NCBI GenBank assembly: GCA_017887445.1 | Contig: JAGHIA010000156.1 | Coordinates: 1-33,216, forward strand | Direction of reading: 5' to 3' | Length of the DNA stretch: 33,216 nucleotides | DNA from: Fusicatenibacter sp. | GTDB lineage: Bacteria > Bacillota > Clostridia > Lachnospirales > Lachnospiraceae | Shown: piece after piece, positions 18,272 through 33,216 of the stretch | Position numbering within the stretch: position 1 is the stretch's first letter | Layout of the letters: each line of letters begins with the position of its first letter | Translations under genes and position numbers: made by a program | Notes under the pieces: generated by a model | Seen by the model: the letters and a program-made list of their open reading frames with translations, nothing else | What the model was told of the DNA's origin: nothing | The model's database searches: none

Positions 18272-18299
18272 ACAGAAACATATGTTACGTTTTCCTGTG

Positions 18300-19141: not shown

Positions 19142-19558
19142 TTGAAACCCTCCCTTGAAAAAATATTTGAAAAATATTTGGCAATCCCCTGGTTTGGAGC
19201 GTGCTTGGACATGCATTCCAGCAGCCTGACCACCACAACTACGGCGCCTATATTGCGGAACTCAATGTTCAGACATGCTCCAGATTTTTTTCAGTTTAAC
19301 ACTTTTGGAAGAATATGGCAATGAAAAGATGCCGGGGTAAAAGCCGGCGCCGCAGATGAGTTCTGAAAATTCACACAGTTTCGGAAACCAAGAACCTCTA
19401 AGCTTTTAAAAATTAGTTAATTCGGAACATGTTTTTGTAAGTCCTTTGTTTATGCGGAAAAACGCCAGAAACCTTGTATTTACGCTGAAAAACAAGGTTT
19501 CTGTTACACTGTGAGATACGGTTGAGAAATGAGAAAATTCGTACCGGTTAGTAACAAA
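19142..19558. other. Intergenic region with probable left edge of the second element
   Basis: No gene is seen. It carries the upstream region of the kinase gene, a small GCCGG/CCGGC hairpin near 19331-19348, near-direct repeats TTTATGCGGAAAAA and TTTACGCTGAAAAA (about 19449 and 19479), a strong hairpin at 19466-19503 and a doubled TTAGTAACA (19538-19557) abutting the integrase stop. The integration junction should lie here, but without the right end the att core cannot be defined. Confidence 0.5.
19456..19503 (-). terminator. Terminator downstream of the integrase gene
   Basis: A perfect 12-bp stem (CAGAAACCTTGT at 19466-19477 with ACAAGGTTTCTG at 19492-19503) is followed on the minus strand by GGCGTTTTT. 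It fits termination of integrase transcription; being next to the junction it could also be part of the attachment site. Confidence 0.6.
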
Positions 19559-20707
19559 TTAGTAACAGGCTTTTATTTTCTCTATCTCTGTCCGTAGATC
19601 CTCCAATTCGCGGTGCCCGTAAATATCGTTTGTGATATCTTTAAAAGCATGTCCCAACATCCTTTTGCGGTCATTGTCTCTTATACCGTATTTTTCACAC
19701 AGACGCGAAAACGTATGACGGCAATCGTGTGGTGTGTGATTAGGTATTTTGTGTATGACAAGAAATTCGCCCATCTGATTTCGGAAAGTGCCTGAAGTGA
19801 CGGAGAGGAGTTTTTTGTCACGCTGCAATCTTTCTTTTACCAGGGACCGGATAGCGGAATGTATCGGGACGATTCGATTTTTTCCGGCTGCCGTTTTAGA
19901 ACCGCCGCGGAAATACCCGTCTTTGAGATTTACTTCAAGATTCCGGTACTCATTGATCCGGAAGCCGCTATAGCACATAATCAGCAACATCTCTGCAGTC
20001 GGATCAGCCTTGCTGTTCCAGATTACTTTTAGATTATCATCGCTAAAAGGTACGCCATGTTCGTCATCATCCGGGATTTTGATTTTAACGTGCGCAGAAT
20101 AATCTTTATCGCATAAGCTAATGATTTCCGCGTACGCATACATCTGGTGCATCAGGCTGAGTATCAGTTCCTGACTTGCATGCTTCAGAGTGCAGCTGTC
20201 AAGCACACCTTGCAGATCCTCGTAGCGGAGAGCCGTAAAAACTTTATCATGTAGCACAGAACAATTCTTGAAAGCGGCGCGGGTAGAATTTTTTGCTGCT
20301 TTGGAATAATTGCGGCTTTTGTCCTGCTCATACTTCCAGACGTAAAAATCTTCGTACACTTCACGAAAGGTTTTCAGCGTTTCGGCTTGCTGCGCGTCGG
20401 ATCTGGTCAACTGATTGTAGTCTGCCAGGATCCGGCGGACAAGATCGCCACTAGACTGAGCTTCTGCGAGGTTGAGCGTATTTTCCATTCCTGGTGTGTA
20501 TGTCCCGGCCTTGTAAGCAGTAAGAACCGCAAAGCCTTTCATCCAGTCGTCAACGTAGCAAATCGCCTTGGGTGTCTGAGGGATACCGTTAAGGTCAAAC
20601 TCTTTCGTTGGCGGATGTACGGCATAGGGATTCCGGCGGCCGGCGCCAAGGTACTTGATGCTTCCATAACCGTTGGGGAGCTTGGGGTACTTTTTGCGTT
20701 TTGCCAT
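19559..20707 (-). CDS. Tyrosine integrase of the second mobile element
   Basis: The protein has 382 residues. It would insert and, with an excisionase, excise the element. Catalytic residues are Arg in YSGFRINE, HDCRH, LGH and Tyr in NDIYGHRE near the C-terminus. The N-terminal 70 residues (KRKKYPKLPNGYGSIKYLG) match the arm-binding part of prophage and ICE integrases of Clostridia. ATG 20707 has AAAGGAG at good spacing. It reads toward the element edge, as usual. It is unrelated in order and sequence to the three recombinases of region A. Confidence 0.9.
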   Translation of the reverse strand: MAKRKKYPKLPNGYGSIKYLGAGRRNPYAVHPPTKEFDLNGIPQTPKAICYVDDWMKGFAVLTAYKAGTYTPGMENTLNLAEAQSSGDLVRRILADYNQLTRSDAQQAETLKTFREVYEDFYVWKYEQDKSRNYSKAAKNSTRAAFKNCSVLHDKVFTALRYEDLQGVLDSCTLKHASQELILSLMHQMYAYAEIISLCDKDYSAHVKIKIPDDDEHGVPFSDDNLKVIWNSKADPTAEMLLIMCYSGFRINEYRNLEVNLKDGYFRGGSKTAAGKNRIVPIHSAIRSLVKERLQRDKKLLSVTSGTFRNQMGEFLVIHKIPNHTPHDCRHTFSRLCEKYGIRDNDRKRMLGHAFKDITNDIYGHRELEDLRTEIEKIKACY

Positions 20708-20762
20708 CAAATCATCTCCTTTTGAGTATAAAAATAACAGTTAGCACGAACTTGTGTTCTGC

Positions 20763-20791
20763 TTGCGTAGCTGTCACGAAGATGATACAAT
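20763..20791 (+). promoter_or_regulatory. Candidate promoter of a small RNA
   Basis: TTGCGT (20763-20768) and TACAAT (20786-20791) are 17 bases apart on the plus strand. The -10 box is good, the -35 box weak. No plus-strand gene follows, but a terminator does at 20891-20921. Confidence 0.35.
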
Positions 20792-20797
20792 ATTATT

Positions 20798-21465: not shown

Positions 21466-21537
21466 GGTAACACATCCTTTCACTTTTTTTATTGATGCAG
21501 CGACTCTTGCAAATATATTATCAATCAGCGAAAGTTT

Positions 21538-22005: not shown

Positions 22006-22009
22006 ATAA

Positions 22010-22516
22010 TCACTCCCATTCGCTGTCATCCATCATAATATTGTCGGCGGCTTGCTTTTGTTCGTCCGTTGCTCCATTATCATGTGCAGCGTTCAAGATT
22101 GTAGAAGGGGGTGAAACAAAAGTTTCTTTTTTTTTAGAACTGTCAGAACACTTTTTTGAAAAATCAATCGCTTTTTTCATTAAAGAATGTAGTGCGGAAA
22201 TATCTGCATCATCTAATTCCAGCATAAGTTTAAAAAGATTTTTCCGGTCTTCATCTTCGCCAGCCATGATCCGGTCAATTTTGGCCATAAATTCATCATC
22301 GCTTTCAAGGAACATTTCCCCTTTACCAGTTGTTAGCCATTTATATTCAACGCCAAATTCACGGCAGATGGATTTTGCCATATGCTCGGTGAGAGTTCTA
22401 CGATTGTTTTCAATATCAGAAATCGTAGATTTACCAACACCAATGCGAGCACCGAATTTTTCCAAAGTGAGCACAAGCTCTTTTCTTAATTTTTTCACGC
22501 GTTCTCCCTGTGTCAT
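22010..22516 (-). CDS. XRE-family repressor of the second element
   Basis: The protein has 168 residues. An N-terminal Cro/C1 helix-turn-helix (about 5-65) contains LEKFGARIGVGKSTISDIEN and ends with the WLTTGKGEMF segment typical of Clostridia phage repressors. The rest is an acidic to Ser/Lys-rich tail. ATG 22516 has GAGGAGG. It faces the early operon across a shared control region with dyads, and it lies directly before an ImmA-like gene. This is the layout of a lysogeny-style switch controlling excision. Confidence 0.87.
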   Translation of the reverse strand: MTQGERVKKLRKELVLTLEKFGARIGVGKSTISDIENNRRTLTEHMAKSICREFGVEYKWLTTGKGEMFLESDDEFMAKIDRIMAGEDEDRKNLFKLMLELDDADISALHSLMKKAIDFSKKCSDSSKKKETFVSPPSTILNAAHDNGATDEQKQAADNIMMDDSEWE

Positions 22517-22586
22517 AAGAACACCTCCTCGTAGCATGTCTTTAATTATTACAATACCACTATCATGCGAAAAAATCAATGAAAAA

Positions 22587-22639
22587 AGTTCGCAAATAGG
22601 AACTATAATATTGACAAAGTTCTGTTAAAGGAATATAAT
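22587..22639 (+). promoter_or_regulatory. Early promoter with overlapping operator dyads
   Basis: TTGACA (22611-22616) and TATAAT (22634-22639) match consensus and are 17 bases apart. A perfect 5-bp dyad AGTTC/GAACT spans 22587-22604 just upstream and a second, imperfect one (AGTTCTGTTAAAGGAAT) covers the spacer. A related sequence CGCAGATAGGA follows the -10 box. The repressor coded on the minus strand is the likely ligand. Confidence 0.7.
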
Positions 22640-22669
22640 GTACGCAGATAGGAAAAGGAGGTGGAATGA

Positions 22670-22852
22670 ATGGTCACAAGAAATGAGAAGAAAGAAATTA
22701 TTGAACAGATGGCCGAAGAATATATGGACACAGCCAATTTAGAGGAAAAATCCATGGCGATTATGGTCATGTATGCGTATATCGAAGGAAAAGCTGCCGG
22801 AAAAGCAGAGGAAAGAAGCAAGTGGGAGAAAAAGGAATTGACCACAACATAA
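22670..22852 (+). CDS. Small early protein, hypothetical
   Basis: The protein has 60 residues with a strong AAAGGAGG site. It is helical and charged (KKEIIEQMAEEYMDTA, then EGKAAGKAEERSKWEKK) with no known domain. It is the first gene of the early operon, where elements of this type carry anti-repressors or excision helpers. Confidence 0.6.
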   Translation: MVTRNEKKEIIEQMAEEYMDTANLEEKSMAIMVMYAYIEGKAAGKAEERSKWEKKELTTT

Positions 22853-22874
22853 TGATTCTGAAGGGAAAGAAATA

Positions 22875-22964
22875 ATGAAAAAATTGGAGGAACGTTTGCT
22901 GATTTCGCAGAACACGAGTTGCTTCAAACCAAAGAGAAGCCAGCGTAAAGGAGGAAGACCATGA
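22875..22964 (+). CDS. Very small protein (29 residues) in the early operon
   Basis: ATG 22875 has GAAGGGA upstream and the frame ends in TGA overlapping the next start (ATGA). The product is basic at its end (KPKRSQRKGGRP). Coupling to the next gene supports translation; the overlapped GGAGG of the next gene codes for part of it, so it could also be only a leader peptide. Confidence 0.45.
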   Translation: MKKLEERLLISQNTSCFKPKRSQRKGGRP

Positions 22965-23167
22965 CAGACTTAATCAAATTGTCGCAGCTTAACACGCAAA
23001 AGCTGTTCGGCTGCACACTCAACGCAGCCAGAGAGCGGGCGAAGGCCGGGATTATCCCCGGGGTGAAAATCGTCCAGATGAAGAATAGAAAGAACTACTT
23101 TGTCTGGAAGGCCAAGCTGGAAGAAACCATCGGGAGAAAACTGACAGAGGATGACTTGGCGAAATGA
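22961..23167 (+). CDS. Small DNA-binding-like protein, possible excisionase
   Basis: The protein has 68 residues with an AAAGGAGGAAG site. The pattern LSQLNTQKLFGCTLNAARER, then IPGVKIVQMKNRKNYFVWKAKLEE resembles winged-helix excisionase/MerR-like domains (helix, recognition helix with charged end, strand, strand). Place and size fit an Xis for the integrase on the other strand. The similarity is weak, so this is a suggestion only. Confidence 0.6.
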   Translation: MTDLIKLSQLNTQKLFGCTLNAARERAKAGIIPGVKIVQMKNRKNYFVWKAKLEETIGRKLTEDDLAK

Positions 23168-23247
23168 AAAACGCTGGTATGGCTGCTGAGATGGCAGGAG
23201 TGTTTACCTTTTGTATGTCGGTAGCCTCAGAGCCGGTGGCGATCTGA
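23164..23247 (+). CDS. Possible 27-residue coupled protein
   Basis: ATG 23164 overlaps the stop of the previous gene (ATGA) and the frame runs 27 codons. GAGG lies about 12 bases upstream. No motif is recognised. Overlap coupling is the only support. Confidence 0.3.
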   Translation: MKNAGMAAEMAGVFTFCMSVASEPVAI

Positions 23248-23401
23248 GAGTAAACTTGTTTGCACTGATCGATACGATAAATACCGCAAACAGTTGGCCG
23301 ACAGAAATGCGCGTAAAGCAGTACCAGAGTTTTCGGCGGTTGAAATTTCGATCGAAACTCTGTGGCAGAGAAAGTGATTATGATTGGAGATGAATAAGAC
23401 T

Positions 23402-23593
23402 ATGGTGATCAAAAACGCGAACACGATTGCACAGTATAAAATCCTGCGCTGGATGGACGAGAACTTCTTTCCTAGCAGCGTCACAGCAGAGTTTACAGAA
23501 CGAGATACCGCGATCATTACTGACCGAACCGGAGACTCTATGGAAGTAGCTTATGACACTGTGGCCGACCAGGTTATCGAAGTGAAGGAGTAA
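23402..23593 (+). CDS. Small hypothetical protein
   Basis: The protein has 63 residues from ATG 23402 (GGAG 12 bases upstream); ATG 23390 and TTG 23384 are in-frame alternatives with poorer spacing. The sequence alternates polar and hydrophobic residues (TAIITDRTGDSMEVAYD), suggesting a small beta-rich protein. No family recognised. Confidence 0.5.
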   Translation: MVIKNANTIAQYKILRWMDENFFPSSVTAEFTERDTAIITDRTGDSMEVAYDTVADQVIEVKE

Positions 23594-23606
23594 GAAGGCA
23601 ACGTGT

Positions 23607-23623
23607 GTGTCAGAGTCTGACAC
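23607..23623. promoter_or_regulatory. 17-bp palindrome, site 1 (candidate parS)
   Basis: GTGTCAGAGTCTGACAC, a perfect 8+1+8 palindrome that extends by one more pair on each side. It lies in the leader of the first cell-wall-binding gene, 17 bases before the start codon. Confidence 0.6.
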
Positions 23624-23640
23624 AGAAAGGCAGGATAAGT

Positions 23641-24099
23641 ATGCAGAAAAACAAGATTGCGGCAGCATTATTAGGCATGGGACTGATGGCAGGAGCACTT
23701 GCATTACCTGTAACTGTATCGACGACCATGACATATGCGGCGACAGAAATAATCGGTCATGGGGAATGGCTGAAGAAAGGGGATCACTGGTACTACTACC
23801 AGAACGGAAAGTTGCTGAAGGATTGCTGGTTAAAGGATGGCATTGATTGGTATTATCTCAATGCGGACGGAACCATGAAAGCAGATGAGTTTGCCAGGAT
23901 TGATAATGACTGGTATTACTTCCGCAGTTGGGGTGGACGCTGCTATAACCAGAAGATGACAATTAGCGGTGAAGTTTATGTTTTCGACGAAAATGGTCAT
24001 GTTAATGATGCGCCAGAATCGATAGAGACCACAGATTCTTTCTTCTGGATTTTAATTATTGTTTATCTTATATTGATTTGGTTGTTTTGGAAAGATTGA
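23641..24099 (+). CDS. Secreted protein with cell-wall-binding repeats and C-terminal membrane helix
   Basis: The protein has 152 residues. A signal peptide (MQKNKIAAALLGMG to about residue 31, TYAAT) is followed by three choline/glucan-binding-type repeats rich in Trp and Tyr (WYYYQNGKLLKDCW, WYYLNADGTMK, WYYFRSWGG). It ends in a hydrophobic helix (FFWILIIVYLILIWLFW). The repeats would bind cell-wall or exopolysaccharide. The first 100 residues closely match the gene at 32496, including the leader with the palindrome, so the two are duplicates within one element. ATG 23641 has GGCAGGAT; the frame upstream is not part of the gene. Confidence 0.82.
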   Translation: MQKNKIAAALLGMGLMAGALALPVTVSTTMTYAATEIIGHGEWLKKGDHWYYYQNGKLLKDCWLKDGIDWYYLNADGTMKADEFARIDNDWYYFRSWGGRCYNQKMTISGEVYVFDENGHVNDAPESIETTDSFFWILIIVYLILIWLFWKD

Positions 24100-24325
24100 T
24101 AATAATCGGTATTTGTTGTTTTGGTTGTTGATATGCTAGTCAAGATGCAGAAGAAAAGCAAAAAAAGAGAATACCGTCAACTTTGGGGGTGCTACGGTAT
24201 TCTCTGAGAGACGATGAAGTGGACTATATAAGGAACAGTATTATCACTATCATCATCACTGCTGTTATTACTATTACACCATAGCAAATACTCGACAAAA
24301 AGTCAAGGGTGTAAGGGTGAAAAAA
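24100..24325. other. Intergenic stretch before the sigma-like gene
   Basis: No gene is seen. It contains the hairpin at 24166-24205 and a short ATC/ATT-rich tract (about 24240-24275). No strong promoter was found. Confidence 0.45.
24166..24205 (-). terminator. Hairpin with terminator features on the minus strand
   Basis: AGAGAATACCGT (24166-24177) pairs perfectly with ACGGTATTCTCT (24194-24205). The T-run (from AAAAAAA at 24160-24166) is on the minus strand; on the plus strand none follows. It may block antisense transcription or end the first cell-wall-binding transcript in a factor-dependent way. Confidence 0.5.
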
Positions 24326-24871
24326 ATGCCGACAACAAACGTAATAGTAGATGTGATACAAAATTATTCGGATATGCTCCAACAACTTGATCAGAGCATA
24401 CAGCGCATAGGTCGGGAGTGGATCGAACTGGACGAAAACATATATCAGTATATGAGCTTAAAGGGAATGATATACGGTGATCGTGGACAGGGAGGAAGTA
24501 ATTACAATTCAAGGGATTTGCTGGATCTATTAAGCGCGGTCAAAAAGAAGGAGACAGAATACGAAGCAGAACTGAAAGAGTCATTGCTTGATTTGATAAA
24601 GCAGCGGGATGACATACGCAGGATACACTTATGCTACATGGTATTGCCTTATATCGAGCATGAAGTGCTGAGACTCTTATATGAGGAAAACCTGACATGG
24701 GGGAGGGTGTCAGAAAAATTGGATATAAGTATCAGCACCCTATCGCGTAAACGTGATAAGGCGTTAAACATGATACATACAGCTTATTCTTCTGATCTGA
24801 GCACTACGGAGGTATTGCAGCTGCAAAAGGTCAGAAAAGGTATTGATTGGAAATATCTATTAAAAAAGTAA
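24326..24871 (+). CDS. Sigma-region-4-like / ArpU-like regulator
   Basis: The protein has 181 residues. The N-terminal 100 residues are helical and unrecognised. At the C-terminus IEHEVLRLLYEENLTWGRVSEKLDISISTLSRKRDKAL is a sigma-70 region-4-type HTH, as in phage late regulators (ArpU, DUF1492 type). ATG 24326 is preferred over GTG 24317 since AAGGG fits it better. It lies 28 bases before the parA start and is probably a regulator of the replication and partition operon. Confidence 0.68.
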   Translation: MPTTNVIVDVIQNYSDMLQQLDQSIQRIGREWIELDENIYQYMSLKGMIYGDRGQGGSNYNSRDLLDLLSAVKKKETEYEAELKESLLDLIKQRDDIRRIHLCYMVLPYIEHEVLRLLYEENLTWGRVSEKLDISISTLSRKRDKALNMIHTAYSSDLSTTEVLQLQKVRKGIDWKYLLKK

Positions 24872-24899
24872 TGAAAAAATGAGAAACGAGGAGAAAGTT

Positions 24900-25640
24900 A
24901 TGAGAGTATTTGCGATTGGAAGCTACAAAGGCGGCGTTGGGAAGACAACTACAACAGTAAATCTGGCTTATGATCTGTCAGTCAAAGGATACCGTGTCCT
25001 TGTCATCGACACGGATCCACAGGCCAATACCACATATATGTATGCGCGTGTCAATGATAATACATATACGCTGGCGGATCTTTTTGCGGGATCAAAAGCA
25101 GAACGATGTATCTACCGGACGAAATATAAAAACCTGGACCTGATCAAAGGATCCTCCCGGATGGAAGAAGCGACCGGAGATGCGGAAGTGCTGAAAGATG
25201 CCCTGCAGACAGTCAAAGAGAGATACGATTATGTCCTGATCGACTGTCATCCTTCCATGCAACTGCCGACGATTGCAGCGATGATCGCAGCGGATGAACT
25301 GCTGATTCCTTTCGAGCCAGATGGCTATGGACGAAACGGGTTGATCATCCTGGACGATTATATCCGACAGATCCGGGAACAGTATAATCCACGCCTGAGA
25401 TATCATATTTTTATCAGTAAGTTTGCAGGCAGGGCGTCCCAGCTCCGGTTGTTCCAGAATCTGATTGAAAAATACGATTACCCGATTATGGATAAATGTA
25501 TTCGTTACCGGGAGGCGGTCAACACGGCGATTGAAAACCGGAAACCACTTCTCAGACACCGCCGATTTGATGCGGTGACAAGAGATTATCTGGAACTGAC
25601 GGATGCGCTGCTGGAACTGGAAAAGCTGGAGGAGGTGTAA
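24900..25640 (+). CDS. parA: ParA/Soj-type partition ATPase
   Basis: The protein has 246 residues, typical of the small ParA without an N-terminal HTH. Deviant Walker A YKGGVGKTTTT is at 9-19, Walker A' in VLIDCHPS and the TDPQANTT segment near 41-50 are present. It would bind the nucleoid in the ATP form and move the ParB-bound element. GAGGAG precedes ATG 24900. It is followed by parB after 4 bases, so both are coupled. Presence of ParA and ParB suggests that the excised element replicates and is partitioned like a plasmid. Confidence 0.92.
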   Translation: MRVFAIGSYKGGVGKTTTTVNLAYDLSVKGYRVLVIDTDPQANTTYMYARVNDNTYTLADLFAGSKAERCIYRTKYKNLDLIKGSSRMEEATGDAEVLKDALQTVKERYDYVLIDCHPSMQLPTIAAMIAADELLIPFEPDGYGRNGLIILDDYIRQIREQYNPRLRYHIFISKFAGRASQLRLFQNLIEKYDYPIMDKCIRYREAVNTAIENRKPLLRHRRFDAVTRDYLELTDALLELEKLEEV

Positions 25641-25644
25641 TACG

Positions 25645-27111
25645 ATGGCTGATATCAGTGCGATTTTGAAAAATAAAGGCGTAAGCGGTGTGAAAAAGGG
25701 AACGGCGGCGCATTATGAAGTTACCATGATCCATTACAGCCAGATCTATCCTAGCAAAATGCAATTTTACGCCCAGGCAGATATCGAAGAACAGGCAGAC
25801 AATATTGAGTTGGCGGGCGGAATCATGCAGCCGCTGGTAGTAAGGAAAAAGGATGCGGATCAGTATGAGTTGCTTGCGGGACACCGCCGTCTGGAGTCGA
25901 TTAAGCTGCTTGTGGAAGAAAGAGGCTGCGGAAAATATGCTATGGTTCCGTGCCATATCGAGCAGGCAAATGACTGGAGAGCAGAATACCTTCTGATCAC
26001 AACAAACAGTTATCGCGAGAAAAGCGGCTATGAAAAAATGATGGAAGTGCAGCGTCTCTCTGAGATCATCCCGCACCTGTCTGGAAATGAGCAGTTGAAG
26101 GGACGGGCCTTAAGAGCGCAGGTGGCAAAAGAGTTGAAAACAGGGGAGACGTCAATCCAAAATTACAATTACATTTATAGCCATCTGTGTCCGGAAGGGA
26201 TGGAAGCATTTAAAAATGGAGTTATCAAGACATCCGTTGCAAATGACCTGGCTCATTTGGAAGAGGAAGAGCAGAAAGAGCTTTTAAAGGCAAATGTACT
26301 TACGAGCGCGTCCATTGCCGAGTACATGGAACGAAAAGCGTGTCAAAGTCTGACACAGACTCCGGAGCCGGAATGTGTCCTTAGAAAACCGACGATGGAA
26401 GAACGTACATATCTGGAGCGGTATGCGAAACATTTTATCCGGCGGGAAAAAGACTGGTTGTTGAAGGACTTTGATAAACGGGTTATGGATGTCACAAATT
26501 CTCCGCTGGAAATCTATCAAAGATTTGGTGAGCATGACGATTATTTCCAGATTTGGGAAAAGGAGGTCGGACACATTCATTTTCATGAGAACGCGATCAG
26601 TTTGTTTGCTTCCCGGCAGCTGCTTGGGAAATTTGAATGGTTTTATTTGGCTGCCGCGATACAGGCCATGTGGAACGTAGTGTCCTTAGAAGATGCGCAG
26701 AAAGAATCTGTGTCAAAGTTTGACACCACGAAAGATAAATCACATGAGAACAGTCTGCCCGAATACGGCAAAGAGGACATTGCGATTGATAAAACAAAAG
26801 AGAGTAGTCCGACGTACCAGGCAGAAGCCAAAGATGCAGATGTTGAACCTGAATCAGATGAATCATGCCAAACAAAAGGTCAGGAAGAGCCTGGAGAAAA
26901 TGGTTTGGAACATGACTCGCAAGAGAAACTGCCTACCAAGAAGGAACTGCAGGAAATCCTGCAGGAACTTATCGACGAAAACAAAAGGACTCTGAAAACA
27001 ATGGAAGACTATTGGAAAAGCTGTATGCCGAAGGTGTTATGGAAGCATCAGTTAATCATCCGAGCGGCGGAGAACTACCTGGAATTGCTCTCAGAGGATG
27101 CAACGGAGTGA
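25645..27111 (+). CDS. parB: ParB-family partition protein
   Basis: The protein has 488 residues, longer than usual. The ParB/sulfiredoxin-like N-terminal domain (about 35-110) shows the CTPase-type boxes near GGIMQPLVV and LLAGHRRLESIKLL. A central helix-turn-helix region follows (about 150-200: KGRALRAQVAKELKTGETS). About 370-440 is acidic and disordered; a C-terminal helix is probably for dimer formation. ATG 25645 has GGAGGAGG. Two of the six 17-bp palindromes (26340 and 26710) lie inside this gene, which is usual for parS sites near parB. Downstream genes follow with short gaps. Confidence 0.87.
   Translation: MADISAILKNKGVSGVKKGTAAHYEVTMIHYSQIYPSKMQFYAQADIEEQADNIELAGGIMQPLVVRKKDADQYELLAGHRRLESIKLLVEERGCGKYAMVPCHIEQANDWRAEYLLITTNSYREKSGYEKMMEVQRLSEIIPHLSGNEQLKGRALRAQVAKELKTGETSIQNYNYIYSHLCPEGMEAFKNGVIKTSVANDLAHLEEEEQKELLKANVLTSASIAEYMERKACQSLTQTPEPECVLRKPTMEERTYLERYAKHFIRREKDWLLKDFDKRVMDVTNSPLEIYQRFGEHDDYFQIWEKEVGHIHFHENAISLFASRQLLGKFEWFYLAAAIQAMWNVVSLEDAQKESVSKFDTTKDKSHENSLPEYGKEDIAIDKTKESSPTYQAEAKDADVEPESDESCQTKGQEEPGENGLEHDSQEKLPTKKELQEILQELIDENKRTLKTMEDYWKSCMPKVLWKHQLIIRAAENYLELLSEDATE
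26340..26356. promoter_or_regulatory. 17-bp palindrome, site 2 (candidate parS)
   Basis: GTGTCAAAGTCTGACAC inside parB; one mismatch from perfect symmetry. Confidence 0.55.
26710..26726. promoter_or_regulatory. 17-bp palindrome, site 3 (candidate parS)
   Basis: GTGTCAAAGTTTGACAC inside parB, in the part coding for the disordered segment; perfect palindrome. Confidence 0.6.
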
Positions 27112-27127
27112 AAGTGAGGTGAGGAAG

Positions 27128-27568
27128 ATGAAATCCTGTTGTATTGAACTGATAGATAAGAAGAAAGAGAAACTGGAAAAACTGGCAGCATCCTTTGGTG
27201 TAGATGCTCCAATGCTCCTTACAATCTTTGCGGAAGATCTTCTGGATGGGCATGAGTTGTTGGAACAATGGTCACATGAAACTTTCAAAAAGCCAGATGG
27301 TGCGGCAACAGAGGCGTTGCGGGAGCTGTATCATAAGTGGTCGCTCACGCAGTCATCGATAGATTCGATCTGCGATGCGATGGAAGAGCAGCTGCCGGAG
27401 AAAACATGGAAGGCTGTCGAAGTGGAATTTTTGAGCAGTCTGTCAAGATTGCAGGAGAAAAGTTTTTGGGCAGGAGCAAAGGAAGTTTCCGAACTGCAGA
27501 AACGATTGAAGAATCTGCCGGACATTGCAGAATTGACAAGAGAAAAAGGTGAAATGGAGGAATATTAG
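27128..27568 (+). CDS. Hypothetical protein of the partition operon
   Basis: The protein has 146 residues and no recognised domain. It starts with CCIELIDKKKEKLEKLAASFG and is mostly helical with two conserved-looking Trp. GTGAGG precedes ATG 27128, 17 bases after parB, and the gene ends 1 base before ssb, so it is part of the operon. A role in replication is suggested by place only. Confidence 0.62.
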   Translation: MKSCCIELIDKKKEKLEKLAASFGVDAPMLLTIFAEDLLDGHELLEQWSHETFKKPDGAATEALRELYHKWSLTQSSIDSICDAMEEQLPEKTWKAVEVEFLSSLSRLQEKSFWAGAKEVSELQKRLKNLPDIAELTREKGEMEEY

Positions 27569-27569
27569 A

Positions 27570-27986
27570 ATGAACAAAGTTATCTTGATGGGAAGACTTA
27601 CCCGCGATCCGGACATAAGATATACATCCGGTGAAAACGCAATGGCAGTAGCGCACTATACCCTCGCTGTGGATCGGCGGTACAAGAAAGAGGGTGAGAC
27701 GTCTGCAGATTTTATCCGCTGCGTTGCGTTCGGAAAATCAGCTGAATTTGCGGAAAAATATTTTTATCAGGGTATCCGTATTTGTATCGCGGGGAGGATA
27801 CAGACAGGAAGTTATACAAACCATGATAGGCAGAAGGTTTATACAACAGAGGTTTTTGTGGAGGAACAGCAGTTTGCGGACAGTCGCAAAGCTGGGGAAA
27901 CACCTCCGGTGTCAAATTCTGACACGGATGCGGACGGATTCATGAACATTCCGGAGGGAATCGATGAAGAACTGCCGTTTCACTGA
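27570..27986 (+). CDS. ssb: Single-stranded-DNA-binding protein
   Basis: The protein has 138 residues. The OB-fold N-terminus has the classical NKVILMGRLTRDPDIRYT, then FIRCVAFGKSAEFAEKY and GRIQTGSYTN. A short linker (about 105-130) and the acidic tip DEELPFH, which recruits replication proteins, follow. The linker DNA holds palindrome site 4. GAGG precedes ATG 27570. Elements with their own SSB usually replicate or transfer as single strands. Confidence 0.93.
   Translation: MNKVILMGRLTRDPDIRYTSGENAMAVAHYTLAVDRRYKKEGETSADFIRCVAFGKSAEFAEKYFYQGIRICIAGRIQTGSYTNHDRQKVYTTEVFVEEQQFADSRKAGETPPVSNSDTDADGFMNIPEGIDEELPFH
27909..27925. promoter_or_regulatory. 17-bp palindrome, site 4 (candidate parS)
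   Basis: GTGTCAAATTCTGACAC inside the ssb linker; one position off symmetry. Its codons read VSNSDT. Confidence 0.55.
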
Positions 27987-28007
27987 GCGGAAAGATAGTC
28001 AATAACT

Positions 28008-28049
28008 TTTGGGGTGCCTGGTAGCTTAACTGGCAGAGCGGTGTACAGC
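28008..28049 (+). other. Degenerate tRNA-like 5' half
   Basis: The stretch GGTAGCTTAACTGGCAGAGC looks like a tRNA D-arm and is preceded by a G-rich acceptor-like start. No anticodon arm with a 7-base loop and no T-arm follow. It could be a remnant or a coincidental structure in the leader of the rep gene. Confidence 0.25.
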
Positions 28050-28146
28050 TGGATAGCTGGCGCGGTGAAGGTTAATAAAGAGAGGTGGTAATAATCATCG
28101 AAGATGAAGGAAACGTTGAAGTCTATTGATTGAACCGAGGGAAGCT

Positions 28147-29424
28147 ATGGCAGAAATTTACAGACGTATTAAGAACAAGAATTATACAGTGATGTGTAAT
28201 CATCATCTGCAAAACGAAAGACTGTCTTTAAAGGCGATGGGACTAATGAGTAAAATACTCAGTCTGCCGGACGACTGGAATTACAGTGTCCGGGGTATCG
28301 CAGCCATTTGCAAAGATGGTTATGAGAGTGTCCGGACAGCCTTCCTGGAATTGGAACAGGAAGGATACATCGTCCGGCAGCGGATCCGGGATGCACGGGG
28401 ACACATTGTCCGGACAGAATACTTCATCCTGGAAACACCGGACACAAAAATTCCGGAAGAATATCTGGTCGAAAAGGTCGAAAAAAAGAAAACCCTCCCA
28501 GAGTCTGAGAAAGTGGAGGCTTCAGGACAGAAGACGGCAGACTCAAAGTCATCAGATCAGTGTAACGGCCAGATAGAGCTGACAGATATTTTACCAGGAT
28601 CGGATTTTCCGACCTTGGTAAATCCGACAGGAAAATCACCAGGATCGGATTTTCCAACCCTGGTAAATCCGACAGAAAAATCACCAGGATCGGATTTTCC
28701 AACCCTGGTAAATCCGACGGAAAAATCACCAGGATCGGGTTTTCCAACCACGGAAAATCGCCACCAACAAAATACTAATATAACAAATTATAAAGATATA
28801 GACGATATAAATAATAATAATATATATAATATATCATCATCTTCTTCTTTATCGTCTTCTTCTACTGTGCAAAATAATAAATATATGTCATCTTCGAATG
28901 TAAAAAATAATAAAAGGTCATCTTCAGCGGCAGTAGATAAAACATATGCTCCGGTATCACTCGGTCAATTATGGGAGGATGAAGAAGATATAAAGCGCCG
29001 GATCGGTTATCAGCAGTTACTTGACGATGGACACGATCCGCAGCTGCTGGTGGAAATCCTCTCGCTGATGTCTGATTACTGTTCGAGTCCCCGGGCAAAA
29101 GTGCGTCCATATTCGTACATAGGACAGGCTAAGATCCCGGCAAAAGAGATTGCCGTGCGGCTGCATCAGCTGCAGTATGAGCAGATCGCGGAGATCCTGC
29201 AGCATATCCGGCACGGACCGGAAATCCGCAATCTGAGAAATTATCTCTTAACGGCGCTTTATCAGGCGGATCTTACGTCAAGACTTAACAAGCAGCGCAA
29301 GCATTCTACTGTCAGATCCGGCAGCAAAAAGCAGAATGCCTTTAATAACTTCCGGCAAAGAGATTACGATTACGAGAAACTTGAGCGAGCGTTGTTGTGT
29401 ACGGAAGGAGGGAATGAAGGTTGA
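28147..29424 (+). CDS. Replication-initiator-like winged-helix protein with internal repeats
   Basis: The protein has 425 residues. The N-terminal 100 residues (CNHHLQNERLSLKAMGLM, then WNYSVRGIAAICKDG and LELEQEGYIVRQ) are a winged helix like that of replication initiators and DnaD/RepA_N-type proteins. The middle has 3.5 copies of a 15-residue repeat (PGSDFPTLVNPTEKS). Then come an Asn/Ser-rich run and a helical C-terminal domain (about 275-425) similar to replication-protein C-termini of ICEs (DUF6017-like). ATG 28147 has GAGGGA. It follows ssb in the same direction and is the likely Rep of the element; exact family uncertain. Confidence 0.7.
   Translation: MAEIYRRIKNKNYTVMCNHHLQNERLSLKAMGLMSKILSLPDDWNYSVRGIAAICKDGYESVRTAFLELEQEGYIVRQRIRDARGHIVRTEYFILETPDTKIPEEYLVEKVEKKKTLPESEKVEASGQKTADSKSSDQCNGQIELTDILPGSDFPTLVNPTGKSPGSDFPTLVNPTEKSPGSDFPTLVNPTEKSPGSGFPTTENRHQQNTNITNYKDIDDINNNNIYNISSSSSLSSSSTVQNNKYMSSSNVKNNKRSSSAAVDKTYAPVSLGQLWEDEEDIKRRIGYQQLLDDGHDPQLLVEILSLMSDYCSSPRAKVRPYSYIGQAKIPAKEIAVRLHQLQYEQIAEILQHIRHGPEIRNLRNYLLTALYQADLTSRLNKQRKHSTVRSGSKKQNAFNNFRQRDYDYEKLERALLCTEGGNEG
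28594..28757. repeat. Tandem 45-bp repeats in the rep-like gene
   Basis: Three full units (28594-28638, 28639-28683, 28684-28728) and a partial fourth, nearly identical. Each has inner inverted repeats: CGGATTT with AAATCCG and CCAGG with CCTGG. Iteron-like arrays inside rep genes are known origins in RepA_N-type plasmids; here it is a candidate origin. Confidence 0.8.
28770..28840. other. Very AT-rich run beside the repeats
   Basis: This run consists almost only of A and T (ATAATAATAATATATATAAT-like) and lies just right of the 45-bp array, still within the rep-like frame, where it codes Asn/Ile/Tyr. It could serve as DNA unwinding element of an origin. Confidence 0.4.
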
Positions 29425-29453
29425 ACGATCATGCTGGGCAAAAAGAGAGGACA

Positions 29454-29603
29454 ATGAACTATCTCGATTATTGGCAGATGCAGGAGGATATTGTGCAGGA
29501 ACGGTATCTGTCAAGATGGCAGACGTGTCATTCGCATAAAAAATATAAGACGAGAACAGAGAGAGGAGGTGAAAACACGCATGAAAGCGAAAAAGAAACA
29601 TAG
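29454..29603 (+). CDS. Small hypothetical protein
   Basis: The protein has 49 residues from ATG 29454 with AGAGAGG upstream; TTG 29421 with GGAGGG is an alternative giving 60 residues. It is polar and basic (YLDYWQMQEDIVQERYLSRW) with no known domain, and overlaps the next gene by 23 bases. Confidence 0.45.
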   Translation: MNYLDYWQMQEDIVQERYLSRWQTCHSHKKYKTRTERGGENTHESEKET

Positions 29604-30882
29604 TACGATGCCCTGGTTGATTGGCGGGGGAATCCTGGTTCTGGCGATCGCGATTGGTATTGTGGCATTCCTGTATACGCGCAAAAATGATGCGACGATA
29701 ACACAAAGAATTGTCAGCATATCGGCATCTGCCAGGGAGAGCTATGAGGCCGGTGAGGAACTTGATTCAGGTGATGTAAACGTGACTGCAGAGCTTGCCG
29801 AAAACGGGGGAACAGTCGAATTGGACCCGGGAACATACCGTGTAGAGCCAGAGCTGGTGCCGGCTCACGGACATGACTTTGAAATCACAGTCACCTTATC
29901 CCTTGAAGATCAGGATGAACTGGAGACATTTGCAACAGTCCTGATCGAACGGGAAGAGCTGCTGCGGTATGATATCGGACGCACGGAGCCGGAACAGGTG
30001 CAGGCGGTGCTATATGCCAACGGCGACATGGAAATTGTTGGCGAAGGAGAAGTAAAGCAATACAAAAGCAGTGATATCCCATGGCGCAGCGATGAAGTGA
30101 CGTACCTCACATGGATAGATCCGGCAGCGGAAGTAGAGAGTATGGATTACTGGTTTGCGGGCAGTCAGGTTTTTGGAGGAATGCTGTGTCCGGTACCGGA
30201 TACCGTGCAGAGCATGGTGCAGACATTTTACCAGTGTGTGGCAATGCAGTCTGTGCCGGACATGACCACAGGAATTAACCTGGAAGACATTACGGAATGT
30301 TACAGCGGCTCTGGTGTGAAAGATGGAGGTGTACTGCCAGGGAATCTGAAGACCGCCGAGGGAGCGTTTAGGGATTGTGTGGCTTTGATCCACGCTGCGG
30401 ACAGTGCTGCCTGTGTCAGATTGGCTAATATGAAAAACTGTTACAGCGGATGCAGTGCATTGGCTGATACCAGCACACCGGATTGTGCAGTCAATCTGGC
30501 AGGGGCATATCAAAATTGCCTGAACATAAAAACCGCTGTAATCCCGTCTTCCGCACAAGATCTGGATTCTACATTTTCCGGATGCTCTGGCCTTACTTCT
30601 GTGACTGGGGAAATACCAGCAACTTGCACCAATCTGGCAGGAACTTTCAGAGACTGTAAATTCCTGTCTGGAGATCTGCGGATCAACTGCAGCACGCAGT
30701 CACTATCAGGGACATTCAGCGGAGCTGCTAAAAATGGCACCGGCTTGATTATTGAACTTGTGTGGACCGGTGAGGCGAACAGCTATCAAACGCCGGAAGA
30801 GATCCTGCAGAATCTGAAGGAGTCGCTGGAACAGCAGGCAAAAGAGGAGGGATGCAGTATCACTGTCAAAATCTTAAAATAA
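29581..30882 (+). CDS. Membrane-anchored BspA-like surface protein
   Basis: The protein has 433 residues. A short basic N-terminus and one membrane helix (about 11-33, WLIGGGILVLAIAIGIVAF) anchor it facing outward. Residues about 40-115 look like a bacterial Ig-like domain. From about 130 on, Cys-containing units (MKNCYSGCSAL, FSGCSGLTSV, FRDCKFLSGD) are in the style of BspA/LRR_5 leucine-rich surface repeats. ATG 29581 has GAGAGGAGG. Such proteins mediate adhesion to cells or host proteins; here it is element cargo. A consensus promoter begins just after its stop. Confidence 0.72.
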   Translation: MKAKKKHSTMPWLIGGGILVLAIAIGIVAFLYTRKNDATITQRIVSISASARESYEAGEELDSGDVNVTAELAENGGTVELDPGTYRVEPELVPAHGHDFEITVTLSLEDQDELETFATVLIEREELLRYDIGRTEPEQVQAVLYANGDMEIVGEGEVKQYKSSDIPWRSDEVTYLTWIDPAAEVESMDYWFAGSQVFGGMLCPVPDTVQSMVQTFYQCVAMQSVPDMTTGINLEDITECYSGSGVKDGGVLPGNLKTAEGAFRDCVALIHAADSAACVRLANMKNCYSGCSALADTSTPDCAVNLAGAYQNCLNIKTAVIPSSAQDLDSTFSGCSGLTSVTGEIPATCTNLAGTFRDCKFLSGDLRINCSTQSLSGTFSGAAKNGTGLIIELVWTGEANSYQTPEEILQNLKESLEQQAKEEGCSITVKILK

Positions 30883-30924
30883 AAATTACCAAGAATTGAC
30901 AACGGTAATTTCTGGTGATATAAT
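30883..30924 (+). promoter_or_regulatory. Consensus promoter with dyad, upstream of the HipB/HipA-like pair
   Basis: TTGACA (30896-30901), 17 bases, TATAAT (30919-30924), both perfect. The -35 box lies inside the inverted repeat AAATTACC (30883-30890) and GGTAATTT (30904-30911), a plausible operator for the HipB-like protein. Confidence 0.75.
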
Positions 30925-30955
30925 TGAGCCAGAAGGACAGAAAGAAGGTGAAAGA

Positions 30956-31299
30956 ATGGGATAGCCGAAAAACTGAAAGCTGAGAAGTTAAAAGAAATCC
31001 GAAAGAAAAACGGATATAACCAGAAAGAGATGGCAGAGATCATTGGCGTAACGCCAGCGGCTATCTGCCGCTGGGAAAAAGGCGAGAGAGTGATTTCGGA
31101 CTGGGTGATCAAATCATACAGCAGGTACTTTGGCGTCCCGGAATCGTACTTTACCGGATCCGATGAACCGATCCTGAGTCCGCAGGAAAAGCGCCTGCTG
31201 AAATATTTCCGGTTGTTAGACGAGGCAGCGCAGGAAAAATATCTCGAAGCAATGTCCGGGAAAGGAGGGACGGTGTCAGAGTCTGACACCATAAGGTGA
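30956..31299 (+). pseudogene. HipB-like XRE protein with a frameshift at its start
   Basis: The domain is intact in one frame from 30961 to 31299: KLKEIRKKNGYNQKEMAEII, then VTPAAICRWEKGER, a Cro/C1 HTH of about 112 residues. The only start with a good site (AAGG, ATG 30956) is out of frame and stops at once (ATG GGA TAG); adding one base in GGGATAG would join it to the domain (MGIAEKL). The first in-frame ATG (31030) would lose the first helix of the HTH. This is either a recent frameshift, a sequencing error, or use of a rare start. Its stop overlaps the HipA-like gene, and palindrome site 5 lies in its last codons. In HipBA pairs, HipB binds the operator and neutralises HipA. Confidence 0.6.
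31273..31289. promoter_or_regulatory. 17-bp palindrome, site 5 (candidate parS)
   Basis: GTGTCAGAGTCTGACAC, perfect, extended by one G-C pair on each side, at the end of the hipB-like frame and 9 bases before the hipA-like start. Confidence 0.6.
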
Positions 31300-32456
31300 T
31301 GGAAAGCTTTTATCTCATGAACAAAGATACCCCTGTTTTGAAGTTCCAGATCACCCAGGGAGCTTTCGGAACTGTCGAATTGACAGAGACGGAACGTTAT
31401 ACAGAACCGCTGCCCATTGGTTTCCAGACGATCCAAAACTGGGTGGAAAACCGGCAGGCTCCAAAACACCGCGAGCATATCGCGGAACTGATGCGGATGT
31501 GCGGATGCTCCCGGCTGGATGGATTTGTGAGGATCACACATGCGTTAAGTCTTAACGATACCTTCTGGACAAAAGCGGAGGAGAGTCCTCTGCGGTGGGA
31601 TGATGTATCGCTTTACCAGAATGATTTTGATGAAACGATCGCGAGGATAGCTTTCGAAGGAGGAATGTACAGGGAACGTTTCTCAACGACTTCTCCGGAA
31701 TTTGAAACGAATGGTTCCTTTGCTAAATGCTGGACCCGCGATCCGGACGGGAAGATCTTTCTGATGAAGCGCGGTTCCAGAGGGGGAAGAAATGCCGGAC
31801 TGGAACCATTCTCGGAGGTTTACGCCTCACAGGTTGCTGCTCGGATATGTAAGGATTTTGTACCGTACTCTGCGGTTATGTATCACGGAAATCTAGCATC
31901 CAAATGCCCGCTGTTCACTAACGAGAAACAAGGCTTCATACCGTTGTATAAGTGTCTGAACGGCGAATTGACAGTGAGCAATGTCTTAAACTATATGACG
32001 CAGCATGGAACTGAAGAAGATTTCCGCAGGATGCTTGTACTGGATGCTCTGATCCTTAACACAGACCGTCATGCAGGCAACTATGGAATGATCTTTGACA
32101 CAGACAGTCTGCAGATCATAAAAATGGCGCCGGTTTTCGACCATAACCAAGCGTTGCTTCCATATGCGGAAGAAGATGATTTTGCGCATATGGAAGAATA
32201 CCTGGCGACACGTCCAACGAGGATCGGAGAAGATTTTAATGAAGTTGCTTATGAGGCACTTACGCCGGAAATCCGCTCAGACTTGATCCAGATGAAAGGC
32301 TTTCAGTTTCAAAGAGATTTAAAACCTGGACTGCCGGAAGAAAGGCTGAAATATCTTGAAAAGGTTGTAAACCAGCAGATTGATCGGGTATTAAAACGCA
32401 AACAATTATATTTGTCAGAACCAAAACCCAAAAGAAATGCAATAAACCATAAATAA
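31299..32456 (+). CDS. HipA-like Ser/Thr kinase
   Basis: The protein has 385 residues. HipA kinases phosphorylate a target (glutamyl-tRNA synthetase in E. coli HipA) and slow growth. Seen here are a basic glycine-rich nucleotide-binding segment (MKRGSRGGRNAG, about 155-168), the catalytic loop ILNTDRHAGNYG (about 255-266) and the metal-binding PVFDHNQAL (about 281). The N-terminal 150 residues do not look like the usual HipA N-lobe. ATG 31299 overlaps the hipB-like stop. Given the partner frameshift, the pair may be decaying or the kinase may no longer be toxic. Confidence 0.8.
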   Translation: MESFYLMNKDTPVLKFQITQGAFGTVELTETERYTEPLPIGFQTIQNWVENRQAPKHREHIAELMRMCGCSRLDGFVRITHALSLNDTFWTKAEESPLRWDDVSLYQNDFDETIARIAFEGGMYRERFSTTSPEFETNGSFAKCWTRDPDGKIFLMKRGSRGGRNAGLEPFSEVYASQVAARICKDFVPYSAVMYHGNLASKCPLFTNEKQGFIPLYKCLNGELTVSNVLNYMTQHGTEEDFRRMLVLDALILNTDRHAGNYGMIFDTDSLQIIKMAPVFDHNQALLPYAEEDDFAHMEEYLATRPTRIGEDFNEVAYEALTPEIRSDLIQMKGFQFQRDLKPGLPEERLKYLEKVVNQQIDRVLKRKQLYLSEPKPKRNAINHK

Positions 32457-32461
32457 TGTTC

Positions 32462-32478
32462 GTGTCAAAGTTTGACAC
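32462..32478. promoter_or_regulatory. 17-bp palindrome, site 6 (candidate parS)
   Basis: GTGTCAAAGTTTGACAC, perfect, in the leader of the second cell-wall-binding gene, 17 bases before the start. Same spacing as site 1, so the leader was duplicated with the gene. Confidence 0.6.
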
Positions 32479-32495
32479 AGAAAGGTAGGATAAGT

Positions 32496-33128
32496 ATGAA
32501 GAGAAACAAGATCGCGGCAGTATTATTAGGCATGGGACTGATGGCAGGAGCGCTTGCATTACCGGTAACTGTACCGACGACTACGACATATGCGGCGACA
32601 GCCACACAGGTGATCGGTCATGGTGAGTGGCAGAAACAAGGGGGTCACTGGTACTACTACCAGGACGGAAAAATGCTGAAAGACTGCTGGGTGAAGGATG
32701 GGATCGACTGGTATTACCTCAATGCGGATGGAACCATGAAAGCAGATGAGTTTGTCAAAATTGATAATGACTGGTATTATTTCCGCAGCTGGGGTGGAAT
32801 GCAGTATAACAACTGGTATCAGAATCCGAAAGATGGTAACTGGTATTACTTCCGCAGCTGGGGCGGAGCGCTGAACACCGGTTGGAATAAAATTGGGATT
32901 GATTGGTATTATTTTGATGCGGACGCAAAGATGCTCCATGATCAGTGGATACAGCAGGGAGATGACTGGTACTACTTAAGAAGCTGGGGCGGCCGGATGT
33001 ACAGCCAGTGGGGTAAGGTCGGAATCGACTGGTACCGCTTTGACGCCAACGGAAAAATGCTCAGTGACGAATGGTATAAGGAAGGAAATGACTGGTACTA
33101 TCTGAGAAGCTGGGGCGGACGGATGTAA
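32496..33128 (+). CDS. Secreted cell-wall-binding-repeat protein, cut by a nonsense codon
   Basis: The protein has 210 residues as read. A signal peptide (MKRNKIAAVLLGMG, cleavage near TYAAT) is followed by at least nine Trp/Tyr-rich repeats of the cell-wall-binding type, with unusual RSWGG insertions (DWYYLRSWGG). At 33126-33128 a TAA stands where the preceding repeat has TAC (RMYSQWGK becomes RM-stop). The frame after it goes on in the same repeat pattern (SQWGKVGIDWYRF) to the window end, so the intact protein was longer. ATG 32496 has AAAGGTAGG. It is a paralogue of 23641. The stop may be mutation or sequence error. Confidence 0.78.
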   Translation: MKRNKIAAVLLGMGLMAGALALPVTVPTTTTYAATATQVIGHGEWQKQGGHWYYYQDGKMLKDCWVKDGIDWYYLNADGTMKADEFVKIDNDWYYFRSWGGMQYNNWYQNPKDGNWYYFRSWGGALNTGWNKIGIDWYYFDADAKMLHDQWIQQGDDWYYLRSWGGRMYSQWGKVGIDWYRFDANGKMLSDEWYKEGNDWYYLRSWGGRM

Positions 33129-33216
33129 AGCCAGTGGGGCAAGGTAGGCATCGACTGGTACCGCTTCGAGGCCAACGGAAAGATGCTCAGCAATGAATGG
33201 TATCAGGAAGGAGATA
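32979..33216 (+). repeat. Tandem 126-bp repeats in the cell-wall-binding gene
   Basis: The units start at about 32979 and 33105 and code for 42 residues each. The second runs out of the window. Near identity suggests recent copying, and units can be gained or lost by recombination. Confidence 0.7.

What the first reader, a model, noticed from the sequence alone, without database searches (positions are those of the whole stretch)
23607..32478. Six copies of a 17-bp palindrome in the ParAB-carrying element: a likely new parS set
The palindrome GTGTCARAKTYTGACAC occurs at 23607, 26340, 26710, 27909, 31273 and 32462. By eye I found none in the first 23.6 kb. Copies are both between genes and within coding sequence (twice in parB, once in ssb, once at the end of hipB-like). 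Sites within genes speak against simple operators and for ParB binding sites. The motif does not look like the chromosomal parS of Bacillota (TGTTTCACGTGAAACA).
Basis: partly seen in the sequence, partly recalled or inferred. Interest (0 to 1): 0.8.

Follow-up and report, generated by a model that had tools for sequence, protein, structure and literature searches.

The report
ParB-binding centromere sites across a conjugative element
A gut bacterium's mobile DNA element carries a DNA-segregation protein (ParB) and at least 14 copies of a 17-letter palindrome scattered along it; comparison with dozens of relatives shows that the palindrome is very probably that protein's own docking site, with one amino acid predicting one letter of the site.

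Summary
Six copies lie at the stated places and no other place in the window matches within 3 mismatches. The 3.88-Mb genome assembly holds 14, all inside one ~49-kb integrative conjugative element (ICE): 6 here and 8 on contig C60.

158 ParB homologues found by protein searches fall into 82 clusters; palindromes with GTGTC arms lie within 500 bp of parB in 38 of 82, and no other of the 1,024 possible arms exceeds 2. One residue of the recognition helix, 173, predicts base 6 of the site: Arg goes with GTGTCC (37 of 37 clusters with a site), Gln with GTGTCA (21 of 21). Of ten window genes only ParA and ParB recur in most other site-bearing loci. Peptides made by intragenic sites keep the palindromic codons (22 of 24).

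So this is a ParABS system with a parS family that my ten literature searches did not find in print, on mobile elements of Lachnospiraceae and kin, including Flavonifractor phage Cormatin and ParB-DUF3850 fusions tentatively linked to RNA in 2025. The 14-18 dispersed sites resemble RK2's KorB operators. Whether ParB segregates the ICE, silences it, or both, is inferred. Nothing was tested at the bench.

The parts
19547..19567 (+). probable attL: 21-bp direct repeat whose second copy is at C60 35142-35162
   Evidence: longest repeat between window 17301-23700 and C60 28001-40000; overlaps the 3' end of the recombinase gene
19559..20710 (-). tyrosine recombinase (integrase)
   Evidence: Pfam Phage_integrase, E 2e-8
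23607..23623 (.). predicted parS 1, between genes, upstream of a choline-binding protein gene
24900..25640 (+). ParA ATPase (an in-frame ATG lies at 24879 too)
   Evidence: Pfam AAA_31 1.9e-43; PHROG 164 ParA-like 5.6e-61
25645..27111 (+). ParB, 488 aa: ParB_N CTPase-fold domain, helix-turn-helix (helices 153-164 and 168-180), long C-terminal region
   Evidence: Pfam ParB_N 7.8e-8, PHROG 4715 1e-39, model of residues 1-240 with mean pLDDT 90.2, best fold matches Noc, ParB, KorB
26340..26356 (.). predicted parS 2, inside parB (off the frame used by the other intragenic sites)
26710..26726 (.). predicted parS 3, inside the C-terminal part of parB (peptide VSKFDT)
27570..27986 (+). single-strand DNA-binding protein gene carrying a site
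   Evidence: Pfam SSB 2e-28
27909..27925 (.). predicted parS 4, inside ssb
31030..31299 (+). HipB-like HTH gene carrying a site near its end
   Evidence: Pfam HTH_3 4.6e-6
31273..31289 (.). predicted parS 5, near the end of the HipB-like gene
32462..32478 (.). predicted parS 6, between the HipA-like gene and a second choline-binding protein gene

Best explanation
The palindromes are the nucleation sites (parS) of the ParB encoded at 25645-27111, which works with the ParA encoded just upstream. Each half-site is read by the recognition helix of one ParB monomer, and residue 173 contacts base pair 6/12. By analogy with ParB, Noc and KorB, ParB loads at a site with CTP, closes into a clamp and slides. 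With 14-18 sites over ~49 kb, clamps would cover most of the ICE, mark it as one body for ParA-driven segregation when it is excised and copied, and probably damp its transcription as well. Shown by sequence: confinement of the sites to the ICE; association with this ParB family; residue-base covariation; selection at the DNA level. Inferred: direct binding, CTP-dependent sliding, segregation, any silencing.
For: (1) 14 of 14 exact sites in the assembly lie in the ICE. (2) In 397 family genomes the motif occurs in 17 others than the window's: 10 carry a homologous ParB on the same contig as a site (18 sites in those genomes, 3 of them on contigs where no ParB was seen); 7 have one site each and no ParB in the DNA examined, against 9 genomes with a single hit each for the reversed control. 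(3) De novo, with no motif given, TGTC-armed palindromes are 51 of 191 odd 15-bp palindromes in 138 protein-found loci (0.75 expected; loci not deduplicated); the next class has 7. (4) GTGTC arms within 500 bp of parB in 38 of 82 clusters of ParBs found by protein, next best arm 2, mean 0.07 over 1,024 arms (40 of 85 with the window and four ParBs first reached through the motif). (5) Residue 173: Arg with GTGTCC in 37 of 37 clusters with a site, Gln with GTGTCA in 21 of 21; Asn (window) and Val (L091) with GTGTCA once each. Ten of ten later loci with a site (two on contigs used before) are Arg with GTGTCC. (6) Residue 173 lies in helix 168-180 of the model and aligns with an Asn of Noc that by the paper's numbering equals Caulobacter ParB N178, a parS-contacting residue (PMC7383237, passages). 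(7) 22 of 24 VSxxDT peptides in the cluster representatives use palindrome-forming codons; about 8% expected with even codon use. (8) Of ten window genes sought in 57 other site-bearing loci, ParA is found in 52 and ParB in 50; SSB in 13, seven others in 0.
Against: 24 of 82 ParB clusters have no recognisable site in the DNA fetched, 11 of them with Arg173 and 6 with Gln173; some contigs are short, and ParBs of the L063 type, mostly with Asp, Thr or Met at 173, must use another site if any. The A/C switch needs only 4 changes on the tree, 2 forced by well-supported branches, so a phylogeny-corrected sign test has no power (p 0.5). L283 has Asn173 but a palindrome with C at position 6 and altered arms, against Asn reading A. 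In 14 of 64 site copies of Gln loci only one half has A. Most intragenic ICE sites share one reading frame (9 of 10), which a peptide-level explanation would also predict. In 12 genomes the C-type pattern occurs 12 times in 4 genomes, 8 of these on contigs known to hold a ParB of the family and 4 on contigs not examined for one. No binding, CTPase or stability data exist.
Confidence: 0.88

Rival explanations
1. KorB-like reading: the ParB is chiefly a global regulator of the ICE. It loads at the dispersed sites and slides to silence promoters over kilobases; partition is secondary.
For: Sites are dispersed over transfer, cargo and maintenance genes. 8 of 18 sites with at least 9 of 10 arm bases lie between the genes I listed, six of them 16-65 bp before a predicted start. 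KorB structures are among the fold matches. RK2 KorB has 12 sites (title of a reference seen) and silences at long range by CTP-dependent sliding (PMC11790492, passages).
Against: The other ParB loci carry at most 4 sites in the DNA fetched, and in 50 of 82 clusters one lies within 600 bp of parB rather than at many promoters. An intact ParA lies beside the ParB. 10 of the 18 sites are inside genes.
Confidence: 0.3
2. The palindromes are operators of another DNA-binding protein of the ICE, such as the HipB-like repressor or the sigma-like protein before parA.
For: Sites lie near the HipB-like gene end and before two choline-binding protein genes.
Against: Neither protein was found in any of 57 other site-bearing loci (tblastn, E 1e-3, stretches of at most about 30 kb). 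The base change tracks a ParB residue. Many elements have the site inside or just before parB.
Confidence: 0.03
3. A protein-level motif (VSxxDT) is conserved and the DNA palindrome is a by-product.
For: 9 of 10 intragenic sites in the ICE share one frame.
Against: 8 of 18 ICE sites are between genes and one intragenic site is in another frame. In 24 clusters the best site lies 34-42 bp before the parB start. 22 of 24 peptides use the palindromic codons.
Confidence: 0.01
4. Repeats spread by copying (a transposon end, a REP-like element, an uptake or recombination signal) rather than a protein's target.
For: Two copies precede paralogous choline-binding genes with similar leaders (sequence).
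Against: The flanks of the other copies differ. The exact motif is absent from the rest of the assembly. Palindromes of the same build recur beside distant ParB homologues on phage and plasmid records.
Confidence: 0.01

Closest known systems
Chromosomal ParB-parS and Noc-NBS (Caulobacter, B. subtilis)
   Same: Fold, palindromic 16-17 bp sites, specificity set by recognition-helix residues; parS inside parB is known in B. subtilis (recalled).
   Different: Site GTGTC(A/C)N5(T/G)GACAC is odd-length and unlike TGTTTCACGTGAAACA (0 matches in the window). The specificity switch falls on the residue equal to Caulobacter N178, which is conserved in ParB and Noc, not on R173/G201 (PMC7383237, passages).
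KorB and its 12 operators on plasmid RK2
   Same: ParB-fold protein with a ParA partner (IncC) and many sites on a conjugative element of about 60 kb (size recalled).
   Different: Unrelated site sequence (recalled). Whether the ICE ParB represses transcription, or has a KorA-like partner, is unknown.
ParB-DUF3850 fusion proteins of prophages (PMC12704722, passages)
   Same: The L064, L068 and L074 ParBs are such fusions and, as reported there, ParB-DUF3850 fusions occur with parA.
   Different: That paper suggests an RNA-related role; here they have a specific DNA palindrome, inside parB in these three.
Dispersed centromeres of linear phage-plasmid N15 (recalled)
   Same: Several ParB-type sites spread over a mobile element.
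   Different: N15 has 4; different ParB family and site (recalled).
BisD of Pseudomonas putida ICEs (mentioned in PMC12704722, passages)
   Same: ParB-like protein on an ICE.
   Different: Described there as a CTP-dependent regulator of gene expression; the protein here has an adjacent ParA.

Membership tests
ParABS partition system | ParA-type Walker ATPase in one operon with ParB | tested here: met
   AAA_31 1.9e-43, directly upstream, same strand; PHROG 164. Co-transcription itself not tested
ParABS partition system | ParB N-terminal CTPase fold with its nucleotide-binding motifs | tested here: met
   ParB_N; invariant G58, G79, R82, N121 across 29 homologues (their reading as CTP motifs is recalled); fold matches Noc and ParB. 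Actual CTP binding not tested
ParABS partition system | Helix-turn-helix DNA-binding domain | tested here: met
   helices 153-164 and 168-180, block pLDDT 95-98
ParABS partition system | C-terminal dimerisation domain | tested here: inconclusive
   no Pfam domain beyond ParB_N in the protein; residues 241-488 not modelled
ParABS partition system | Palindromic sites confined to the same replicon or element | tested here: met
   14 of 14 exact sites in the ICE
ParABS partition system | ParB binds the sites | not testable with these tools
   only indirect: residue-base covariation
ParABS partition system | System stabilises inheritance of its element | not testable with these tools
   needs a plasmid stability assay
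Chromosomal Spo0J/parS | Site TGTTTCACGTGAAACA | tested here: not met
   0 matches in the window within 3 mismatches; the sites are of the GTGTC type
KorB-type global regulator | Many sites dispersed over a conjugative element | tested here: met
   18 sites with at least 9 of 10 arm bases and 2 of 3 inner pairs over 48.8 kb
KorB-type global regulator | Represses promoters, with a clamp-locking partner (KorA) | not testable with these tools
   no expression data; no KorA homologue was sought
HipB or other local operator | Sites confined to the promoter of the regulator's own operon | tested here: not met
   sites spread over the ICE; HipB homologue in 0 of 57 other site loci

The most novel reading that the evidence does not exclude
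The ICE is covered end to end by ParB: 14-18 parS sites, mostly 0.1-4 kb apart, make the 49-kb element one ParB domain, so that ParB is at once its centromere and its own silencing coat, self-addressed by sequence and ending near the ICE borders. Relatives with 1-4 sites would be plain partition systems, and this ICE a later step towards element-wide coating.
Probability: 0.3. Interest if true: 0.75.

Novelty: new variant of a known kind. Interest (0 to 1): 0.62.

Why it matters
It gives a predicted DNA target to a large ParB family of gut mobile elements, including ParB-DUF3850 fusions whose role was left open in 2025, so their function becomes directly testable with one oligonucleotide. It offers a natural protein-DNA recognition code (Gln with A:T, Arg with C:G) at a position different from the known ParB/Noc switch. 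It also suggests new orthogonal ParB-parS pairs for DNA labelling, and a way to recognise elements that maintain or silence themselves through ParB.

Tried and rejected
Operators of the HipB-like or sigma-like protein: rejected, no homologue found in 57 other site loci. Peptide motif VSxxDT: rejected by codon use and intergenic copies. ParBs that I take from recall for the Tn1549 kind (L077, L079, L080, L082-L085) are more distant and were left out as weak before the counts. Close ParB relatives were sought in genome contigs and viral contigs with the window protein alone: none. The mixed alignment A1 was too diverse to search with. tRNA genes near the ICE ends: ARAGORN found none in the window or in C60 20001-40000. 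In one search the sign test had no power. C60 40001-40905 was not read.

Rows dropped before counts: of 173 loci with a ParB hit, 7 weak ParBs and 3 under 150 aa (163 kept; 173). Five of the 163 were the window or were reached through the motif, not the protein (window, L091-L094); one search repeats the two main counts without them (158 ParBs, 82 clusters). Two of the 138 loci (L149, L235) matched only outside the ParB core. Some of the 138 are other copies of records already seen as G-handle stretches. The covariation table used 58 chosen ParBs; searches use all.

Literature: ten searches of an open-licence library only. No paper there holds any of six palindrome cores as text. Papers seen as passages only: PMC7383237, PMC12704722, PMC11790492, PMC10197239. 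Others as search listings with the start of the abstract. Statements on N15, on the sequence and size of RK2 and its sites, on the CTP motifs and on B. subtilis parS inside spo0J are recalled.
Full report
CHECK. GTGTCANANTNTGACAC occurs 14 times in the 3,880,909-base assembly: six in the window's contig C18 and eight in contig C60; the reversed control gives 0. About 0.014 would be expected for 14 fixed bases in even-composition DNA.

THE ELEMENT. C60 carries a TraG-type ATPase, an NlpC/P60 protein, a VirD4-type coupling protein, an ArdC-like protein and a MobA/VirD2-type relaxase, with a sortase and SpaA-type domains as likely cargo. A 21-bp direct repeat is found at window 19547, at the end of a tyrosine recombinase gene, and at C60 35142. 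C18 ends and C60 begins within choline-binding repeats in the same orientation, without an exact overlap of 16 bases or more, so I infer that they adjoin across a repeat. The ICE is then window 19547-33216 plus C60 1-35162, 48.8 kb without any gap. All 14 exact sites are inside. With one arm mismatch or other inner bases allowed there are 18 with at least two of three inner pairs (19 hits; the 19th has none): 10 inside genes and 8 between genes, by a gene list that I made from the ORF tables (its list set the ssb frame wrongly, and with the start at 27570 that site is in the common frame). Nine of the ten intragenic sites share one frame. The host's family carries the code f1; one f1 contig (G276:C53, 20,885 bases) has the same length and ParB as CAMWHJ010000053.1, labelled Lachnospiraceae.

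PROTEINS. The protein at 24900-25640 is a ParA. The one at 25645-27111 is a ParB: ParB_N at the N-terminus, PHROG 4715 'ParB-like partition protein', and an AlphaFold2 model of residues 1-240 with mean pLDDT 90.2 whose best fold matches are Noc, ParB/Spo0J and KorB (TM-scores by query length 0.33-0.62 for these). The columns invariant in 29 homologues (M1, G58, G79, R82, N121) fall, apart from M1, in what I take from recall to be the CTP-binding motifs.

SITE AND ParB TRAVEL TOGETHER. In 397 genomes of the family the motif occurs in 18, the window's own included. Of the other 17, ten have a homologous ParB on the same contig as a site (18 sites in those genomes) and seven have one site each with no ParB in the DNA examined, about 12-20 kb each and 53 kb in one case. 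Nine genomes have a single hit for the reversed control, so those seven are at background. A C-type pattern (GTGTCCNANTNGGACAC) in 12 genomes gave 12 sites in 4 genomes and 0 control hits; 8 of the 12 are on contigs known to hold a ParB of the family.

DE NOVO. Protein searches that used no site information gave 138 loci. Among all odd palindromes of 15 bp in these 1.75 Mb, arms TGTCAGA (24) and TGTCCGA (22) lead; TGTC-armed ones are 51 of 191 against 0.75 expected (loci not deduplicated). In all, 163 ParBs were clustered at 80% identity into 85 clusters: GTGTC arms lie within 500 bp of parB in 40 of 85, the best other arm in 2. Without the window and four ParBs that I first reached through the motif, it is 38 of 82 against 2. 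With at least 9 of 10 arm bases, 53 of 85 clusters have a site within 600 bp: 24 at -34 to -42 before the parB start, 22 inside parB, 5 downstream, and 2 farther upstream (L188 -182, L101 -435); 50 of 82 without the motif-led ones.

THE CODE. Bases 6 and 12 vary mainly between A:T and C:G. Residue 173 of the window ParB numbering follows: Arg with C in both halves in 37 of 37 clusters with a site, Gln with A in at least one half in 22 of 22, Asn (window) and Val (L091) with A once each; 24 clusters have no site; 37 of 37 and 21 of 21 without the motif-led loci. Among single site copies of Gln loci, 50 of 64 have A in both halves and 14 in one, one of these with C in the other half (L113). Position 170 also covaries (mostly Lys against Gln or Asn). 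On a tree built without the helix the class changes 4 times, at least 2 of them on strong branches, and Arg/non-Arg at 173 changes 4 times as well; there are too few independent switches for significance. Ten later loci with a site all have Arg and C; two are on contigs seen before, and three (L279, L280, L284) are distant homologues. L279 is Flavonifractor phage Cormatin, whose ParB is annotated as hypothetical protein WAK79880.1 beside a ParA-like protein. Against the code: L283 has Asn173 with a C-type palindrome of altered arms.

WHY 173. The profile aligns it with the Asn of 'TIANKL' in Noc. From the paper's Noc Q158 = ParB R173 and K164 = position 179, that Asn equals ParB N178, listed there as a parS-contacting residue conserved in ParB and Noc (PMC7383237, passages). 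The switch here is therefore at another position than the known ParB/Noc switch (R173, G201).

DNA-LEVEL SELECTION. In the cluster representatives, 22 of 24 VSxxDT peptides downstream of residue 215 are encoded by GTGTC...GACAC (about 8% expected for even codon use). Together with the intergenic copies this speaks against a purely protein-level motif.

OTHER BINDERS. Of ten window genes sought in 57 other site loci, ParA is found in 52 and ParB in 50; SSB in 13; the sigma-like, orf156, RepA-like, LRR, HipB-like, HipA-like and choline-binding genes in none (tblastn at E 1e-3 on partial elements). ParA was detected within 1.5 kb upstream of parB in 44 of 57.

COMPARISON. The family includes ParB-DUF3850 fusions (L064, L068, L074). 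A 2025 survey found such fusions consistently beside parA and tentatively linked them to RNA (PMC12704722, passages). Their palindromes point to ordinary DNA partition instead. Dispersed sites over a conjugative element recall RK2 KorB with its 12 sites (PMC11790492, passages). The other ParB loci carry at most 4 sites in the DNA fetched; their elements were seen only in part, so that this ICE stands out is likely but not proven.

VERDICT. A parS set, predicted with high confidence; a new variant of a known kind. Segregation is the likeliest role; element-wide coating and silencing is the most interesting open reading.

Noticed in passing
L254-L275 and L278 (except L273), and L063: A ParB subgroup with Asp, Thr or Met at the position of 173 has no GTGTC site in the DNA fetched; it may use another, unknown site.
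   Followed up: partly
L076 near 10466 and 10623: ParB with Lys at the position of 173 (read from alignment A1) beside two palindromes of type TGTTCGAnTCGAACA: a possible third specificity.
   Followed up: no
L058 8643-10142: The C-terminal half of the window ParB (228-474) matches a 503-aa protein with a different N-terminus.
   Followed up: no
L059 2808-4724: A ParB of this family carries an RNA polymerase alpha C-terminal domain, perhaps a link between partition and transcription.
   Followed up: no
L006 12076-12975: A second tyrosine recombinase gene inside the ICE near its right end.
   Followed up: no
window 23641-24099 and 32495-33216: Two paralogous choline-binding protein genes, each preceded by a copy of the palindrome.
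   Followed up: partly
L290 9982: A site (GTGTCAGAATGTGACAC) of the type found 3-6 kb from parB in several L064-type loci, but with no ParB in the ~20 kb examined: possible remnant of an element.
   Followed up: no
window 5711-11203: Three consecutive tyrosine recombinase genes followed by a DUF6262 gene: probably a separate mobile element outside this ICE.
   Followed up: no
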